Of a stretch of 39,534 bases of DNA, positions 21,447 to 36,087 are shown piece by piece. The notes beneath the pieces were generated by a model. That model worked only from the letters and a program-made list of their open reading frames with translations. It ran no database searches and was not told where the DNA came from. The position numbers and the translations under genes are program-made. Source of the DNA: a virus; IMG/VR virus record IMGVR_UViG_3300047550_001153, positions 1-39,534 of that record; one strand, given 5' to 3'. The number at the start of each line of letters is the position of its first letter. Positions within the stretch are counted from its first letter, which is position 1.

Positions 21447-22367
21447 TCAACCCCAACCCCAGATCAAGCTGGAGCTGCTGCTCTGTGTTGAAGGCTTTTT
21501 TGGCGGTCCCTTCCTTAGTATCAGCTTCATTTCGTTTTCAGCGATGTGAACTCGTCGTTTGGTTGTGTCTTGCGCGATGTTGAGGATCTTGGCGATGTCT
21601 CGCATGGATCGAGGTTGATTGTCTTTTAACCCGTGTCGTAGCTCGATGATCTGCCTGCTTAGATCGCTCATGTGATCTAACGCTTGGTGAACAGCTTCAA
21701 TCTTTGTGTCTTGCTCTAGGTCTTCGCCTACAGGATCATCGTGTGCAGCGATCATCTCGATGTAAGTGCTGGCTTCACCGGAGTTGTTGACCTGAGCATC
21801 AAGGCTGCCAGCATCGATAGAAGCTGCCAAGTAATCTTTCATTGCCCGTGGCGTGACGTTAGCCACTTCAGCACATTGTTCAATGCTTGGGTTAAATCCG
21901 TGCAGACGGTTGTGCTCTAGCGTGAAGGCTCGAACTTTACGCAACGCATCAGTTGCGCCGGTAGGCAGTTTGATGATTCGATCTTGTACTTGGATCGAGC
22001 GCATGATGCCTTGCCTGATCCACCAGTAGGCGTAGGTGCTGAACTTGTAGCCTCGTTCAGGGTCAAACAGTTCAACGGCACGAATCAAACCGATGTTGCC
22101 TTCCTGGATTAAATCTTGCAGGGTAAGGCGATTGGTCAGGTGTTTATATTTCTTGGCGACACCGACAACAAGGCGCAGGTTGCCTTGAATCATGCGCTGC
22201 TTTGCACGCTTACCAAGTTTGATGATCCGCTGCTCTGCTTTAGTTGGCTGATCGCTGCAAATCTCATCCATCCGCTTGATAGCGTGACCCAGCTCGATCT
22301 CCTCTGCGCCTGTTAGCAAAGGGATCTTGCCGATTTCATTGAGGTAATCGCGCAGCGTGTCAGACAT
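21447..22367 (-). CDS. Phage-encoded sigma factor, cyanobacterial sigma70 type
   Basis: 306 residues. Region 1.2 is at 3-33 (DTLRDYLNEIGKIPLLT), region 2 at about 60-133 (NLRLVVGVAKKY, DLIQEGNIGLIRAVELFDPE, KFSTYAYWWIRQGIMRSIQ), then region 3, and region 4 at about 230-290. Core binding and promoter melting parts are strongly conserved. Region 4.2, which reads the -35 box, has NIAQDTTKRRVHIAENEMK in place of the usual R-E-R-(I/V)-R-Q-I-E helix, so promoter choice may differ from the host's. A Ser-rich tail ends in WGWG. It should redirect host RNA polymerase to phage genes. No clear ribosome site; a terminator hairpin lies just before the start. Confidence 0.92.
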   Translation of the reverse strand: MSDTLRDYLNEIGKIPLLTGAEEIELGHAIKRMDEICSDQPTKAEQRIIKLGKRAKQRMIQGNLRLVVGVAKKYKHLTNRLTLQDLIQEGNIGLIRAVELFDPERGYKFSTYAYWWIRQGIMRSIQVQDRIIKLPTGATDALRKVRAFTLEHNRLHGFNPSIEQCAEVANVTPRAMKDYLAASIDAGSLDAQVNNSGEASTYIEMIAAHDDPVGEDLEQDTKIEAVHQALDHMSDLSRQIIELRHGLKDNQPRSMRDIAKILNIAQDTTKRRVHIAENEMKLILRKGPPKKPSTQSSSSSLIWGWG

Positions 22368-31186: not shown

Positions 31187-31699
31187 GTGCCTTCAATCAA
31201 TAACCTCAAGGCTGACCATAAAAACGCCCGCAAGCGCACTGACCGCTCCGCTGAGCTAATCAAAGAATCCTTACAACGCTACGGCGCTGCGCGCTCCATC
31301 GTCATTGACGAGGAAAACCGCATCCTCGCTGGCAACGGCACCGTAGAAGGCGCCAAAGCAGCAGGCATCAAAAACGTCCGCATCATAGAAACTGATGGTG
31401 ACGAAATCATTGCCATCCGGCGCACTAACCTCACTGAAGAAGAAAAAGTAGGTCTTGCCTTGGCAGATAACCGCACATCTGATCTCAGCGAGTGGGATCA
31501 AGAAATGCTTCACAGGCTGTCGCAAGATCATGATCTCTCCCCTTGGTTTGAACAAGAAGATCTGTCAGCATTAGGTTTAGAATCCCCTGACTTTGATGCT
31601 GCTTCAGAAGATGATCAAGGACAGTTAGACAAGCTCGATAAAAAAGAAATCGATTGCACCTGCCCTGCTTGTGGTCATGAGTTCATCCAACAAATCTGA
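31187..31699 (+). CDS. ParB-like nuclease-domain protein with zinc ribbon
   Basis: 170 residues, GTG start. The ParB/sulfiredoxin domain (about 5-85) shows DHKNARKRTDRSAELIKESL, GAARSIVIDEENRILAGNGT and EGAKAAGIKNVRII; a helical part follows (LALADNRTSDLSEWDQEML). The C-terminus has a C-x-C-x2-C layout (DCTCPACGHEF) that may bind zinc. Such phage proteins usually sit beside DNA-modifying enzymes, as here with the Mom-like gene, which it overlaps by 23 bases. It probably guides or regulates modification. Confidence 0.8.
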   Translation: MPSINNLKADHKNARKRTDRSAELIKESLQRYGAARSIVIDEENRILAGNGTVEGAKAAGIKNVRIIETDGDEIIAIRRTNLTEEEKVGLALADNRTSDLSEWDQEMLHRLSQDHDLSPWFEQEDLSALGLESPDFDAASEDDQGQLDKLDKKEIDCTCPACGHEFIQQI

Positions 31700-32402
31700 T
31701 CTCAAAATTGACTGGGCTTCTCATGAAGCCGCAAAATATGCTTGCGAAAACTGGCACTACAGTCGCTGTCTGCCTGTTGGAAAACTTGTCAAGGTCGGTG
31801 CATGGGAAGATGGCAAATACATAGGCTGCGTCATATTTGGTCGTGGTGCAAACCACAATATGCTCAAACCATTCGGACTAAAACAAGATGAAGGCTGCGA
31901 GCTTGTCCGTGTTGCATTAAAAATGCATAAAACACCAGTTTCACGCATCCTTGCCATATCACTAAAATTTCTCAAAGCAAAATGCCCTGAACTAAGGCTC
32001 GTCGTCAGCTACGCAGATGCTGACCAGGATCACCACGGTGGCATTTATCAAGCAACAAACTGGATATACGATGGCCTGAAAAATCAAGGCACCATGGGAG
32101 CCTTTATCGTTAAAGGTAAAAAAATGCACCCTAAATCCGTCCACAGCAAAGGTGTAAAACAAACAATCGAACACGTCCGCAAATATCTTGACCCAAACGC
32201 ATCAATCTTCTACACACAAGGCAAACATAGATACCTCATGCCGCTAGATCAAAAAATGCGTGCTAAACTTGAACCGTTGGCTCAGCCATACCCCAAGCGC
32301 GAGAAGCAGGCGAACGTCGGGACCACCGACACAGCGGCGGAGCATCACCGACCCTCGCGCTCCAATTCCACTAATCAGGAGCTGGTTGATCATGCCAGCT
32401 AA
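31677..32402 (+). CDS. Mom-like DNA modification protein (GNAT-fold)
   Basis: 241 residues from ATG 31677 (GTG 31671 is possible). Blocks WHYSRCLPVGKLVKVGAWED (26-45), YIGCVIFGRGAN (48-59), CELVRVAL (74-81), VSRILAISLKFLK (88-100), RLVVSYAD (107-114) and GGIYQATNW (121-129) follow the Mom family of phage Mu and relatives, which convert adenine to N6-methylcarbamoyl-adenine and protect DNA from restriction. The H-Y pair (27-28), D114 and Y124 fit the family's key positions. The tail after 215 is polar and overlaps the terminase small subunit. Confidence 0.8.
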   Translation: MSSSNKSDLKIDWASHEAAKYACENWHYSRCLPVGKLVKVGAWEDGKYIGCVIFGRGANHNMLKPFGLKQDEGCELVRVALKMHKTPVSRILAISLKFLKAKCPELRLVVSYADADQDHHGGIYQATNWIYDGLKNQGTMGAFIVKGKKMHPKSVHSKGVKQTIEHVRKYLDPNASIFYTQGKHRYLMPLDQKMRAKLEPLAQPYPKREKQANVGTTDTAAEHHRPSRSNSTNQELVDHAS

Positions 32403-32715
32403 AGACACCACCAAAGTCCAGCAAGATATGCGAGTTAATCGCATTGCTAGACTCCTTTGCAATGGTGCGACACGCTCCGAATGCGTTCAATATGCAGCAA
32501 GTGAATGGGGGGTCTCATATAGGACAGGTGATAAATACATCGCTAAAGCACGCGAGCTGCTCCGTGCTGACTGGGAAATTGACCGCAAAACCTTTGTAGC
32601 TGAACTGCTAAGCCAGTTAGCATCACTCCAAAAGGAAGCCCGGAAGAGTAACCAGCCGCATGTTGCTCTCGGGTGTATCAATACTGCGGCACGCATTGCT
32701 CGGGTTTTTGAGTGA
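32392..32715 (+). CDS. terS: Terminase small subunit
   Basis: 107 residues from ATG 32392; a longer frame from 32260 runs over the Mom gene and looks non-coding. AGGAG lies upstream of the ATG. It contains RVNRIARLLCNGATRSECVQ, then YRTGDKYIAKARELLRADWE, a helix-turn-helix DNA-recognition part followed by oligomerising helices (FVAELLSQLASLQKEARKSN). It marks phage DNA for packaging and precedes the large subunit with overlapping stop and start. Confidence 0.8.
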   Translation: MPAKDTTKVQQDMRVNRIARLLCNGATRSECVQYAASEWGVSYRTGDKYIAKARELLRADWEIDRKTFVAELLSQLASLQKEARKSNQPHVALGCINTAARIARVFE

Positions 32716-34031
32716 GCATCCTTGACGCACTACCAGGCGGCACACTCCTAGATGAGCCTGTCCTCGTAGCGCCAGTCAAAGACTGGTCGTACCTTGCCGA
32801 CCAGCTTTATAACAGCCTCACTGATCCGCAGCGTGAAGTATGGGATAGCACCGCCCGCTTCAAACTGCTTTGCTCCGGGCGACGTTTTGGTAAAACCTAC
32901 CTTTGCATCGCACGGCTTGTTGCTTGGGCAGTCAGCAAGCCAGGCAGTCTGAACTGGTACGTCACGGCGAACTACCGGATGGCAAAGCAGATCGCATGGC
33001 GCCAGCTCAAAACCATGGTGCCCGCTGACATCTGCATCAAACGCAACGAATCAGAGCTATCAGTCGAACTGTCTAACGGCAGCATCATTGCCTTGAAGGG
33101 CGCCGAAAATGCTGACAGCCTGCGCGGCGTTAGCCTTTCAACCCTCGTCATAGACGAAGCCGCATACGTCAAACAAGACGCATGGGAAATGGTGCTGCGC
33201 CCGGCATTGTCAGACCAAGGCGGTCCAGCCTGGTTCATTACAACGCCTGCTGGCTTGAACTGGTTTCACGACTTATGGGAGCAAGCGCAGGATGAAGGTG
33301 ACTGGGAAACCTACAGCTACACCACAGTTCAAGGTGGCAACGTCCCGCCTGATGAAATCGAGGCAGCACGGCGCACGCTAGACGAACGCACATTCCGCCA
33401 GGAATACCTCGCCTCCTTTGAAACCCTATCCGGACGTGTCTACCCTGACTTCAGCGACGATAACGTCACTGACAATGCCAAAGACACCGGCGGAGAAATC
33501 TACTGGGGAACTGACTTTAACGTTAGTGTCATGGCTGGCGTTCTGGGCAGTCGCGTCGGTGACACTCTGCATATCTGGGATGAACTAGCCGTCAACCAGT
33601 CCAACACCGATGAAGTGTGCCAGCTCCTAAAAGCACGCTTCCCGGATCGCCGCATCATCGCCTACCCAGACCCGACAGGCTCCGCCAGGAAAACCAGCTC
33701 AGCCGGCAGAACCGACCACGACATCATCCGCCGCTACGGCTTCCAATGCGTTAGCCCCAAGGCGCCATGGGCAGTTAAGGACAAGATCAACGCAACCAAC
33801 TGGATGATTCGCACCGCTGACGGGCACCTAAAACTTTTCATCCACCCACGCTGCAAGCACACGATCAAAGCCCTGAAGAACGTGACCTACAAGCAGGGCG
33901 CAGACGATTACGTCATCGACAAATCAGCAGGCATCGAGCACTGGACTGATGGCTTGGGCTACCTGATCCTTGGTGCCTTCAATCCGCTGTACGAACGGGC
34001 TGGCAAAGGGACTGGCATTAGGGTATATTGA
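32712..34031 (+). CDS. terL: Terminase large subunit
   Basis: 439 residues, GTG start overlapping the small subunit stop. ATPase: Walker A CSGRRFGKT (54-62), Walker B LVIDEAAY (145-152) and the coupling motif ITTPAG. Nuclease: GTDFN (D268), YPDP (D320) and WTDGLGY (D413) provide the RNase H-like acidic triad. It pumps DNA into the head and cuts it. All catalytic residues are present. A terminator hairpin follows at 34200, so the early-right transcript ends after this gene. Confidence 0.95.
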   Translation: MSILDALPGGTLLDEPVLVAPVKDWSYLADQLYNSLTDPQREVWDSTARFKLLCSGRRFGKTYLCIARLVAWAVSKPGSLNWYVTANYRMAKQIAWRQLKTMVPADICIKRNESELSVELSNGSIIALKGAENADSLRGVSLSTLVIDEAAYVKQDAWEMVLRPALSDQGGPAWFITTPAGLNWFHDLWEQAQDEGDWETYSYTTVQGGNVPPDEIEAARRTLDERTFRQEYLASFETLSGRVYPDFSDDNVTDNAKDTGGEIYWGTDFNVSVMAGVLGSRVGDTLHIWDELAVNQSNTDEVCQLLKARFPDRRIIAYPDPTGSARKTSSAGRTDHDIIRRYGFQCVSPKAPWAVKDKINATNWMIRTADGHLKLFIHPRCKHTIKALKNVTYKQGADDYVIDKSAGIEHWTDGLGYLILGAFNPLYERAGKGTGIRVY

Positions 34032-34199
34032 TTCCAACGGCAAAGTCCCCTGCCGTGTATCGCTGTTGACCCGATCAGCAACTTCGGTCGCCTCGGCGCA
34101 ACACGATCAACTGAAGCTGAAGTCGGCAACACGGAAGACTGGTCTTTATCAGTCGCCGTCCCGAGGGATGATTCAGATTCACCTGAGTCGGGCAGGAGA

Positions 34200-34229
34200 G
34201 CCGTCACACCAGTGGCGGCTTTCTGTTTT
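34200..34229 (+). terminator. Rho-independent terminator after terminase
   Basis: Eight-base-pair stem GCCGTCAC / GTGGCGGC (one G-U pair) with an ACCA loop, followed by TTTCTGTTTT. It lies in the 236-base gap 34032-34267, the longest gene-free stretch in the genome, which otherwise holds a second small stem (ACGGCA / TGCCGT near 34037-34056) and a -10-like TATACT. Confidence 0.65.
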
Positions 34230-34234
34230 AGGGC

Positions 34235-34240
34235 TATACT
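34235..34240 (+). promoter_or_regulatory. -10-like element before the cyAbrB gene
   Basis: TATACT follows the terminator and is 28 bases before the cyAbrB start, in the context TTTAGGGCTATACT. A similar ATTAGGGTATATT lies at 34017-34029. No good host-type -35 is found at either, so if real they may be read by the phage sigma factor or another factor. Weak evidence. Confidence 0.35.
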
Positions 34241-34267
34241 CAGCAGCGTCCCGGTTTTACCCTACTA

Positions 34268-34609
34268 ATGCTCACCGGCTCCGAACTCATCGCCAAAGTC
34301 AAAGAATGCGGCGATATGAACAAGTCTGATCTCGTCCGCGAGTGTGGCTACGTCAAAGGCGACAAGCTCTGCTTCACCCAGTTCTACGAAGCACTGCTCG
34401 AAGCCAAAGGTTTTGAACTCAAGCCTGCTGCTAAGCGTGGTCGCAGCCTGACCTACAAAACCAAAGTGCAGTTCAACGGCAAACTGTCCATCGGTGAAGG
34501 TTACGTTCAGGAAATGGGCTTCAAACCTGGCGATGAGTTTGAGATCAAACTTGGTCGCAAGTCTGTTACCCTTTCCGCCGCTACCAGTGAACAACCTGTA
34601 GCAGCCTAA
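34268..34609 (+). CDS. Cyanobacterial AbrB-like transcription regulator (cyAbrB)
   Basis: 113 residues. The N-terminus (LTGSELIAKVKECGDMNKSD, then LVRECGYV) and the C-terminal AbrB DNA-binding part (YKTKVQFNGKLSIGEGYVQE, MGFKPGDEFEIKLGRKSVTL) follow host cyAbrB proteins, which control carbon/nitrogen balance and are nearly universal in cyanobacteria. It stands alone between terminase and portal with its own terminator/promoter-like region. It probably overrides or mimics the host regulator. Strong evidence for a cyanobacterial host. Confidence 0.88.
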   Translation: MLTGSELIAKVKECGDMNKSDLVRECGYVKGDKLCFTQFYEALLEAKGFELKPAAKRGRSLTYKTKVQFNGKLSIGEGYVQEMGFKPGDEFEIKLGRKSVTLSAATSEQPVAA

Positions 34610-34638: not shown

Positions 34639-36087
34639 GTGTACTCCGGCTTCGCTCATTACGACCGCCAACTGACCAGTCGCGTCGCGCAGGTCAATGA
34701 TCCGAACGCTGCTTGGCGTAATCAAGAACCGCACTGGATCTTGATTGAAGACCTGATTGGCGGCACCTACGAAATGCGGCGCCGCCATCGCCGTTACCTC
34801 CCGCAGGAACCACGCGAGCAAGACGAAAGCTACGACAACAGGCTTGCTCGCTCTGTTCTTGCACCGTATTACGTCCGGCTAGAGCGGATGCTCGCTGGCA
34901 TGTTGACGCGCAAGCCGGTCAGGTTAAACGATGTATCTGATCTGGTCCGTGAACAACTATTTGACGTAGACCTGCTCGGTAACGACCTCAACGTCTGGAC
35001 CTATGAAACTGCACGCAAGATGGTGCGTTACGGGCATGTTGGCGTGCTTGTGGATGCACCTGCTGCTGGTGAAAACGGAAGACCGTATTGGGTCAGCTAT
35101 ACGCCGCGTGACATCCTAGGCTGGCGCACTGAGCTAAAAGATGGCGCCCAACAGCTGAGCCAGCTTCGCCTGATGGAAAAGGTGATCGTGGCTGATGGCG
35201 AGTACGGCGAGAAAGAGGTTGAGCAGGTTAGGGTGCTAACCCCTGGCGGCTTTGAGATCCACCGCCGCGACGAGAAATCAGGCGACTTCCAGATCCATGA
35301 CAGCGGCACCACAACGCTAGACGCTATCCCTTTCAGCGTTGCCTACGCTAACCGCGTCAACTTTATGGAATCACGCCCGCCGATGGAAGACATCGCGGAG
35401 CTAAACCTTAAGGCATACCAGATTCAATCTGATCTAGACAATCAACTGCACATCAGCGCCGTGCCGATGCTGGCATTCTTCGGCTTCCCATCTGCTGCCG
35501 AGGAAGTATCCGCCGGTCCTGGTGAGGCTATCGCCTTCCCATCAGAAGGGCGGGCAGAGTACATCGAACCCAGCGGCAACAGCTTTGAAGCGCAGTTCAA
35601 GCGTCTAGAGCAAATCGCTTACCAGATCAACGAGCTTGGTCTGTCTGCTGTACTCGGTCAGAAGCTATCGGCTGAAACTGCCGAGGCAAAGCGCATCGAC
35701 CGCAGCCAAGGCGACAGCACCATGATGGTGATTGCTCAGAACATGCAAGATCTGATCGACAACTGCCTCGTTTATCACGCGCAGTACCTCAACATCCCCG
35801 AGGCTGGTAGCAGCTACGTCAACCGCGACTTCCTAGGCTCGCGCCTTGAACCGCAGGAGATTCAATCCCTTCTGCAGCTTTATACAGCAGGCACCATCAC
35901 GCAGAAGACGCTGCTCGATCAGCTCAGTGAAGGCGAAATCCTTGGTGATGACTTCGACGTTGAAGAGGAGCTAGAAGCTACTCAAAACGGCGGGTTAATC
36001 GAGATGGCGCAACCTGAACCACGGGCAATGCAACAAATGCCTGAGGAATCGCCAGACGACGAAGACGAAGAAGAAATCCCGGCATGA
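34639..36087 (+). CDS. Portal protein, DUF4055 type
   Basis: 482 residues, GTG start. ESYDNRLARSVLAPYYVRLE, then ERMLAGMLTRKPVRLND and the long helix region (AELNLKAYQIQSDLDNQLHI, LGLSAVLGQKLSAETAEAKR) match the DUF4055 portal family. It forms the twelve-fold ring through which DNA passes. The C-terminal 30 residues are very acidic. It is followed by a MuF-like protein, as is common with portals. Confidence 0.85.
   Translation: MYSGFAHYDRQLTSRVAQVNDPNAAWRNQEPHWILIEDLIGGTYEMRRRHRRYLPQEPREQDESYDNRLARSVLAPYYVRLERMLAGMLTRKPVRLNDVSDLVREQLFDVDLLGNDLNVWTYETARKMVRYGHVGVLVDAPAAGENGRPYWVSYTPRDILGWRTELKDGAQQLSQLRLMEKVIVADGEYGEKEVEQVRVLTPGGFEIHRRDEKSGDFQIHDSGTTTLDAIPFSVAYANRVNFMESRPPMEDIAELNLKAYQIQSDLDNQLHISAVPMLAFFGFPSAAEEVSAGPGEAIAFPSEGRAEYIEPSGNSFEAQFKRLEQIAYQINELGLSAVLGQKLSAETAEAKRIDRSQGDSTMMVIAQNMQDLIDNCLVYHAQYLNIPEAGSSYVNRDFLGSRLEPQEIQSLLQLYTAGTITQKTLLDQLSEGEILGDDFDVEEELEATQNGGLIEMAQPEPRAMQQMPEESPDDEDEEEIPA

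What the first reader, a model, noticed from the sequence alone, without database searches (positions are those of the whole stretch)
34268..34609. Phage-borne cyAbrB regulator
The protein keeps both the N-terminal part and the AbrB DNA-binding part of cyanobacterial cyAbrB, a global regulator of carbon/nitrogen metabolism. Its place in a separately controlled slot between terminase and portal suggests expression distinct from its neighbours. It may reprogram host metabolism without any photosynthesis gene.
Basis: partly seen in the sequence, partly recalled or inferred. Interest (0 to 1): 0.7.

Follow-up and report, generated by a model that had tools for sequence, protein, structure and literature searches.

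The report
Phage copy of cyanobacterial cyAbrB regulator
A virus of Synechococcus/Cyanobium-type cyanobacteria carries a shortened, strongly conserved copy of its hosts' own DNA-packaging and gene-regulating protein cyAbrB at the head of its capsid gene block, which suggests that these viruses interfere with host chromatin control.

Summary
Window 34268-34609 (+) encodes a 113-residue protein of the cyAbrB family (Pfam PF14250, E 1e-23), with the N-terminal cyAbrB domain and the AbrB-type C-terminal domain. It lies in a KBS-S-2A-like cyanosiphovirus between terminase and portal. It is a lineage trait: at least 200 IMG/VR contigs encode relatives, and the top 80 show cyAbrB flanked by terminase and/or portal. 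dN/dS is about 0.05-0.15. Slot copies are compatible with one clade, derived from Cyanobiaceae paralogues. No isolate phage searched has a full-length copy. Upstream, the gene is insulated in this phage by a covarying structured RNA ending in a terminator, and by a conserved leader with a -10-like TATACT. Downstream it is probably co-transcribed with portal (29 nt gap), so 'separately controlled' is only half right. Compared with host proteins, the phage version loses the acidic C-terminal tail and swaps DNA-binding-loop residues (N72 to K, K77 to E), while the N-domain stays closer to the host. I favour a regulator that joins or competes with host cyAbrB nucleoid proteins, possibly against silencing of the 52% GC phage genome; metabolic reprogramming is possible but untested. 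Function is inferred, not shown.

The parts
34268..34609 (+). cyAbrB-family gene, 113 aa, stop included
   Evidence: PF14250 E 1.1e-23; at least 200 viral relatives; dN/dS about 0.05-0.15
34268..34411 (+). N-terminal cyAbrB domain, residues 1-48, predicted helical; holds invariant Cys26
34439..34573 (+). AbrB-type (swapped-hairpin) DNA-binding domain, residues 58-102
   Evidence: PF14250; AbrB, SpoVT and MazE lead the fold matches, Z 4-5 at most; the prediction of this half is weak
34232..34267 (+). conserved leader with -10-like TATACT at 34235-34240; presumed promoter of cyAbrB and the head genes
   Evidence: conserved with different upstream genes; conservation falls to background beyond -46; no -35 element found
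34029..34229 (+). structured RNA that starts at the terminase stop codon and ends in an intrinsic terminator (stem 34196-34223)
   Evidence: z -3.95; covariation above 500 shuffles and slid controls; found in 14 viral contigs by pattern; no Rfam match
32712..34031 (+). terminase large subunit, left border of the slot
   Evidence: phrog_2 E 1.8e-45
34639..36087 (+). portal protein, right border of the slot; probably co-transcribed with cyAbrB
   Evidence: phrog_145 E 9e-115; 79% identical to cyanophage KBS-S-2A

Best explanation
The gene is a genuine cyAbrB, captured from a Synechococcus/Cyanobium-type host and kept in one branch of KBS-S-2A-like siphoviruses as the first gene after a promoter at the start of the head-gene operon. 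The protein most likely folds as a swapped-hairpin AbrB-type DNA-binding dimer with a helical N-terminal domain. It probably acts by joining or competing with the host's own cyAbrB proteins: the N-domain stays host-like, while the DNA-binding loop is altered and the acidic tail is gone. The probable result is altered cyAbrB binding to DNA during infection, which would favour transcription of the lower-GC phage genome and secondarily shift host cyAbrB target genes. Shown: family membership, position, conservation, purifying selection, loss of tail, loop changes, insulated leader. Inferred: dimer, DNA binding, partner exchange, timing, outcome.
For: Family and fold. Same slot in the best 80 viral relatives while the terminase next to it alternates between two types. 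Presence by portal identity: 11/11 at 90% or more, 8/9 at 85-90%, 7/25 at 80-85%, 3/23 below 80%. dN/dS 0.046-0.147 for the nearer pairs. Slot copies form one side of a branch, SH-aLRT 99; 41 slot copies are compatible with one clade, p-AU 0.986. N-domain closer to hosts (72%) than C-domain (58%), while host paralogues show 87% and 84%. Acidic residues in the last ten: 0.6 in phage, 3.9 in Cyanobiaceae. Host cyAbrB2 binds long AT-rich tracts and IS elements, represses them, interacts with cyAbrB1, and is compared with H-NS (PMC11368403). Window 52% GC against 67% in Cyanobium loci.
Against: No experiment. Host is inferred, not known; marine Synechococcus may differ less in GC. The expected position in a late operon fits poorly with early anti-silencing. 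Host K77 is E in this clade, which could weaken DNA binding. Partner exchange is not tested here. Greater N-domain likeness could also come from recombination.
Confidence: 0.45

Rival explanations
1. Host-metabolism reprogrammer: the phage cyAbrB binds host cyAbrB target promoters and steers carbon/nitrogen and energy metabolism towards phage production.
For: cyAbrB1/2 control carbon, nitrogen and energy genes in Synechocystis (PMC11368403, PMC13421787). Cys26 is invariant and probably matches the redox cysteine C34 of cyAbrB2 (correspondence inferred).
Against: Probably expressed with the late head genes; altered loop and missing tail argue against simple mimicry of the host protein.
Confidence: 0.25
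2. Phage-own regulator: it binds the phage's conserved leader and tunes the head operon, with no host target.
For: First gene behind a conserved leader; AbrB-type proteins often autoregulate (own knowledge).
Against: Relatives without the gene still have a -10-like TACAAT before portal, so head genes do not need it. The N-domain stays host-like.
Confidence: 0.22
3. Passenger cargo: one of several small genes that land in this slot, without a function under selection.
For: The slot also holds HNH-type endonucleases and other small genes, or nothing.
Against: Purifying selection, retention while the neighbouring terminase is replaced, conserved leader.
Confidence: 0.04

Closest known systems
Cyanobacterial cyAbrB family (PF14250; Synechocystis cyAbrB1 Sll0359 and cyAbrB2 Sll0822)
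   Same: Both domains, invariant Cys26, most conserved AbrB-domain positions
   Different: Phage-encoded, about 10 residues shorter, no acidic tail, shorter loop after Tyr28 and shorter linker, K72 and E77 in the DNA-binding loop
Plasmid- or phage-borne H-NS family proteins and H-NS antagonists of enterobacteria (own knowledge)
   Same: Mobile element carries a version of the host's xenogeneic-silencing protein that could join it or compete with it
   Different: Unrelated protein fold; no functional evidence here; cyAbrB's silencing role is itself recent and only proposed (PMC11368403)
Bacillus AbrB / SpoVT and MazE (SpoVT-AbrB domain proteins)
   Same: C-terminal half matches these folds, Z 4-5 at most
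   Different: Sequence identity about 20%; N-domain is particular to cyAbrB; no toxin gene partner seen
Cyanophage KBS-S-2A, S-H1 and MED4-184 (isolate relatives of the window phage)
   Same: Portal 63-79% identical, same terminase-portal order
   Different: The slot holds other small genes or none; no cyAbrB

Membership tests
cyAbrB (PF14250) | PF14250 domain above the curated cut-off | tested here: met
   83.6 bits against 25
cyAbrB (PF14250) | N-terminal cyAbrB domain ahead of the AbrB domain | tested here: met
   residues 1-48 align; invariant G4, L7, C26, G27, Y28, F39, A42, L43, A46, G48
cyAbrB (PF14250) | AbrB-type fold of the C-terminal half | tested here: met
   AbrB, SpoVT and MazE lead both fold lists, but Foldseek E is 0.12 at best and Z under 5; model confidence in this half is low
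cyAbrB (PF14250) | Acidic C-terminal tail seen in cellular members | tested here: not met
   0.6 against 3.9 acidic residues in the last ten; it is a common trait of cellular members, not part of the Pfam definition, so it does not bar membership
cyAbrB (PF14250) | DNA binding and interaction with other cyAbrBs | not testable with these tools
   needs biochemistry
phage moron (independent cargo gene) | Own promoter, own terminator, absent from close relatives at the same site | tested here: inconclusive
   Promoter-like leader and empty sites seen; the terminator lies upstream, none found between the gene and portal

The most novel reading that the evidence does not exclude
Cyanophages carry a cyAbrB-based anti-silencing strategy: full-length tail-less copies in siphoviruses, and the N-domain alone or fused to other modules in other cyanophages, all docking onto host cyAbrB nucleoid proteins through the N-domain to disarm xenogeneic silencing in cyanobacteria.
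Probability: 0.22. Interest if true: 0.8.

Novelty: new variant of a known kind. Interest (0 to 1): 0.52.

Why it matters
cyAbrB2 was only recently proposed to be an H-NS-like nucleoid protein of cyanobacteria that might defend against foreign DNA (PMC11368403). A phage lineage that keeps a modified copy under selection would be natural evidence for that role, gives a ready probe of cyAbrB partner exchange and DNA recognition, and adds a chromatin-level route to the known ways cyanophages control their hosts.

Tried and rejected
Rfam on the window and on the gap: nothing. PDB by sequence: one match at E 0.23, YabO. PADLOC: no match for this protein. RNA model R1 in 201 Cyanobiaceae genomes: weak hits of at most 35 bits, often several per genome, against 99-121 bits in phages; I take these for ordinary terminators and did not follow them. 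tRNA in the L006 cyAbrB-portal gap: looks tRNA-like but ARAGORN finds none. Toxin-antitoxin reading: no toxin-like partner seen. Integrated copies in Cyanobiaceae: portal matches in 12 of 300 genomes, the closest 55% identical. N-domain fold: no convincing PDB match in the list, but it was barely tested, as the tool warns. dN/dS pairs with L052 were dropped, since an indel shifts the register. A genome search centred on a locus id failed, and a first protein alignment failed on a stop codon.

Full report
Observation. The ORF at 34268-34609 (+) is real: ATG start, 113 residues. Pfam gives PF14250 AbrB-like at E 1.1e-23 over the whole profile. NCBIfam and PHROGs have no good model for it. Residues 1-48 match the N-terminal part and 58-102 the AbrB part of cellular cyAbrBs. 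It sits between a terminase large subunit and a portal protein. The portal is 79% identical to that of cyanophage KBS-S-2A, a phage of Synechococcus WH7803; the window is a 39.5 kb virus record.

How common. A scan of IMG/VR found 200 contigs encoding relatives. In the best 80, cyAbrB lies between a terminase relative and a portal relative wherever the contig reaches that far. The terminase itself comes in two types, roughly 79-97% or only 28-33% identical to the window's, so the gene stays while its upstream neighbour is exchanged. Searching by portal instead gives a denominator that does not depend on cyAbrB: the gene is in the slot in 11 of 11 relatives with portal identity of at least 90%, 8 of 9 at 85-90%, 7 of 25 at 80-85% and 3 of 23 below 80%. 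L178 (and its near-copies L346 and L350) looks like a loss: the bases GCAGCCTAA that end the window's cyAbrB are still there before portal while the rest is gone. Isolate relatives have other small genes or nothing in the slot, and other contigs have HNH-type endonucleases and further small ORFs there (naming by eye). So the slot is a cargo site in which cyAbrB is common.

Origin. In a tree of 118 proteins the 31 slot copies form one side of a branch (SH-aLRT 99), attached among Cyanobiaceae cyAbrBs. With 41 slot copies, including host-like forms L431-L437, the data fit a single clade (p-AU 0.986), although the quick free search had broken it up. The alignment is short and many forks are unresolved, so the exact donor is unknown. 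Cyanobiaceae themselves carry several cyAbrBs: 297 of 300 genomes match, with 1 to 14 copies. Across the phylum 40 of 98 sampled genomes have the family, mostly with two copies. Other viral contigs (L422-L430) carry more host-like copies with no terminase or portal of this lineage nearby, so independent captures are likely; I did not verify that all of these are phage.

What changed. dN/dS between the window and its nearer relatives is 0.046-0.147. Relative to Cyanobiaceae proteins, the viral copies lack the acidic tail (0.6 against 3.9 acidic residues in the last ten; net charge +4.2 against +1.5). In the DNA-binding loop, hosts have N72 (63/63) and K77 (50/63), and the main viral clade K72 (23/25) and E77 (24/25). 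By my own alignment to Bacillus AbrB, position 72 matches Arg15, a known DNA contact (own knowledge, not tested). Cys26 is the only cysteine invariant in the alignment; it is probably the counterpart of Cys34 of cyAbrB2, whose glutathionylation blocks DNA binding (PMC13421787). The N-domain is closer to hosts (72%) than the C-domain (58%), while among hosts both are similar (87% and 84%); the host-like slot forms L431 and L437 reach 98% in N and 70-76% in C.

Structure. AlphaFold with 19 sequences gives a fairly confident helical N-domain (block pLDDT 77-86) and a weak C-domain (mean 66.8 overall, pTM 0.40). The leading PDB matches are AbrB, SpoVT and MazE, aligned at residues 58-111, but none is significant on its own (best Foldseek E 0.12, best Z 4.9). 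No solved cyAbrB structure was found by sequence.

Control region. Between the terminase stop and cyAbrB lies a 200-nt structured RNA ending in a terminator. It folds with z -3.95. Over 10 distinct sequences 97.6% of cells pair and 26 cells show changes on both sides; no shuffle out of 500 reached the observed pairing, two-sided cells or covariation score, and slid controls are far lower. The structure came partly from these sequences, so the slid control leans in its favour. It is absent from Rfam, and a pattern scan of IMG/VR found 14 contigs with it; in those inspected it lies behind terminase, with or without cyAbrB. Many cyAbrB phages lack it and have only about 40 nt before the gene, so it is a second, optional cassette. 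The cyAbrB phages share a short leader, mostly with a TATACT-like -10 box; conservation drops to background beyond position -46. Relatives without cyAbrB have TACAAT about 30 nt before portal. I read this as a promoter at the start of the head operon with cyAbrB as its first gene. No -35 element was found at this box, and the phage has its own sigma factor.

Mechanism. The literature has cyAbrB2 binding long AT-rich tracts and insertion sequences, repressing them, interacting with cyAbrB1, and possibly defending against exogenous DNA (PMC11368403). The window is 52% GC against 67% for the Cyanobium-type loci that gave the closest cellular hits. A tail-less, loop-altered copy with a host-like N-domain is therefore best explained as a modifier of the host cyAbrB system. 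Whether the gain is relief of silencing, host metabolic control or head-operon regulation is open, and no step beyond the sequence has been shown.

Literature and databases. In the open-access library, searches for 'AbrB' with 'cyanophage', with 'phage' and 'Synechococcus', and with 'auxiliary metabolic gene' returned no title or abstract that describes this. I did not read every hit, and subscription papers are not held. Full-length cyAbrB was not found in 50,697 phage records by tblastn with the window's protein or two cellular queries, while N-domain-only matches were.

Noticed in passing
window 34029-34229; L004, L007, L022, L027, L034, L042, L062, L065, L178, L347: About 200-nt covarying structured RNA that starts at the terminase stop codon and ends in a terminator; no Rfam match; present with or without cyAbrB in the same phage group. 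Possibly a new RNA element.
   Followed up: partly
P-TIM68 AIR93619.1 (L162:3001-3159); Synechococcus phage B23 gp246 (L417:1114-1542); S-B28 QBP05844.1 (L418:1180-1740); L220, L224, L488, L489: The cyAbrB N-domain occurs without the AbrB domain in other cyanophages: alone (52 aa in P-TIM68, 79 aa in L220 and L224) or ahead of other sequence, including an ArdA-like antirestriction part in S-B28 (ArdA match weak, E 0.029 in Pfam, 8e-5 in PHROGs; N-domain match E 0.02-0.05).
   Followed up: partly
L336:3936-4328 (G167:C45): In a Cyanobiaceae genome, a contig with a related portal (55%) has a diverged cyAbrB (37%) on the opposite strand between portal and scaffold: a separate capture or move next to head genes.
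   Followed up: partly
L422-L430: Viral contigs of 14-83 kb with host-like cyAbrBs (70-82% to the host query, most with acidic tails) and no relatives of this phage's terminase or portal nearby; possible independent captures, phage status not verified.
   Followed up: partly
window 31671-32402 and 31187-31699: Mom-type DNA modification protein (PF25680, E 6.5e-47) next to a small ParB-like gene (naming by eye, no Pfam match) upstream of terminase.
   Followed up: no
window 21447-22367 (-): Phage-encoded sigma-70-type factor with regions 1.2, 2 and 4, which could read the unusual leader without a -35 box.
   Followed up: no
L006:2967-3171: tRNA-like sequence with a T-loop-like end between cyAbrB and portal; ARAGORN does not call it.
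   Followed up: partly
L001-L080 upstream of cyAbrB: Two terminase types, roughly 79-97% or 28-33% identical to the window's, alternate beside the same cyAbrB-portal-head block: terminase swapping at this junction.
   Followed up: no
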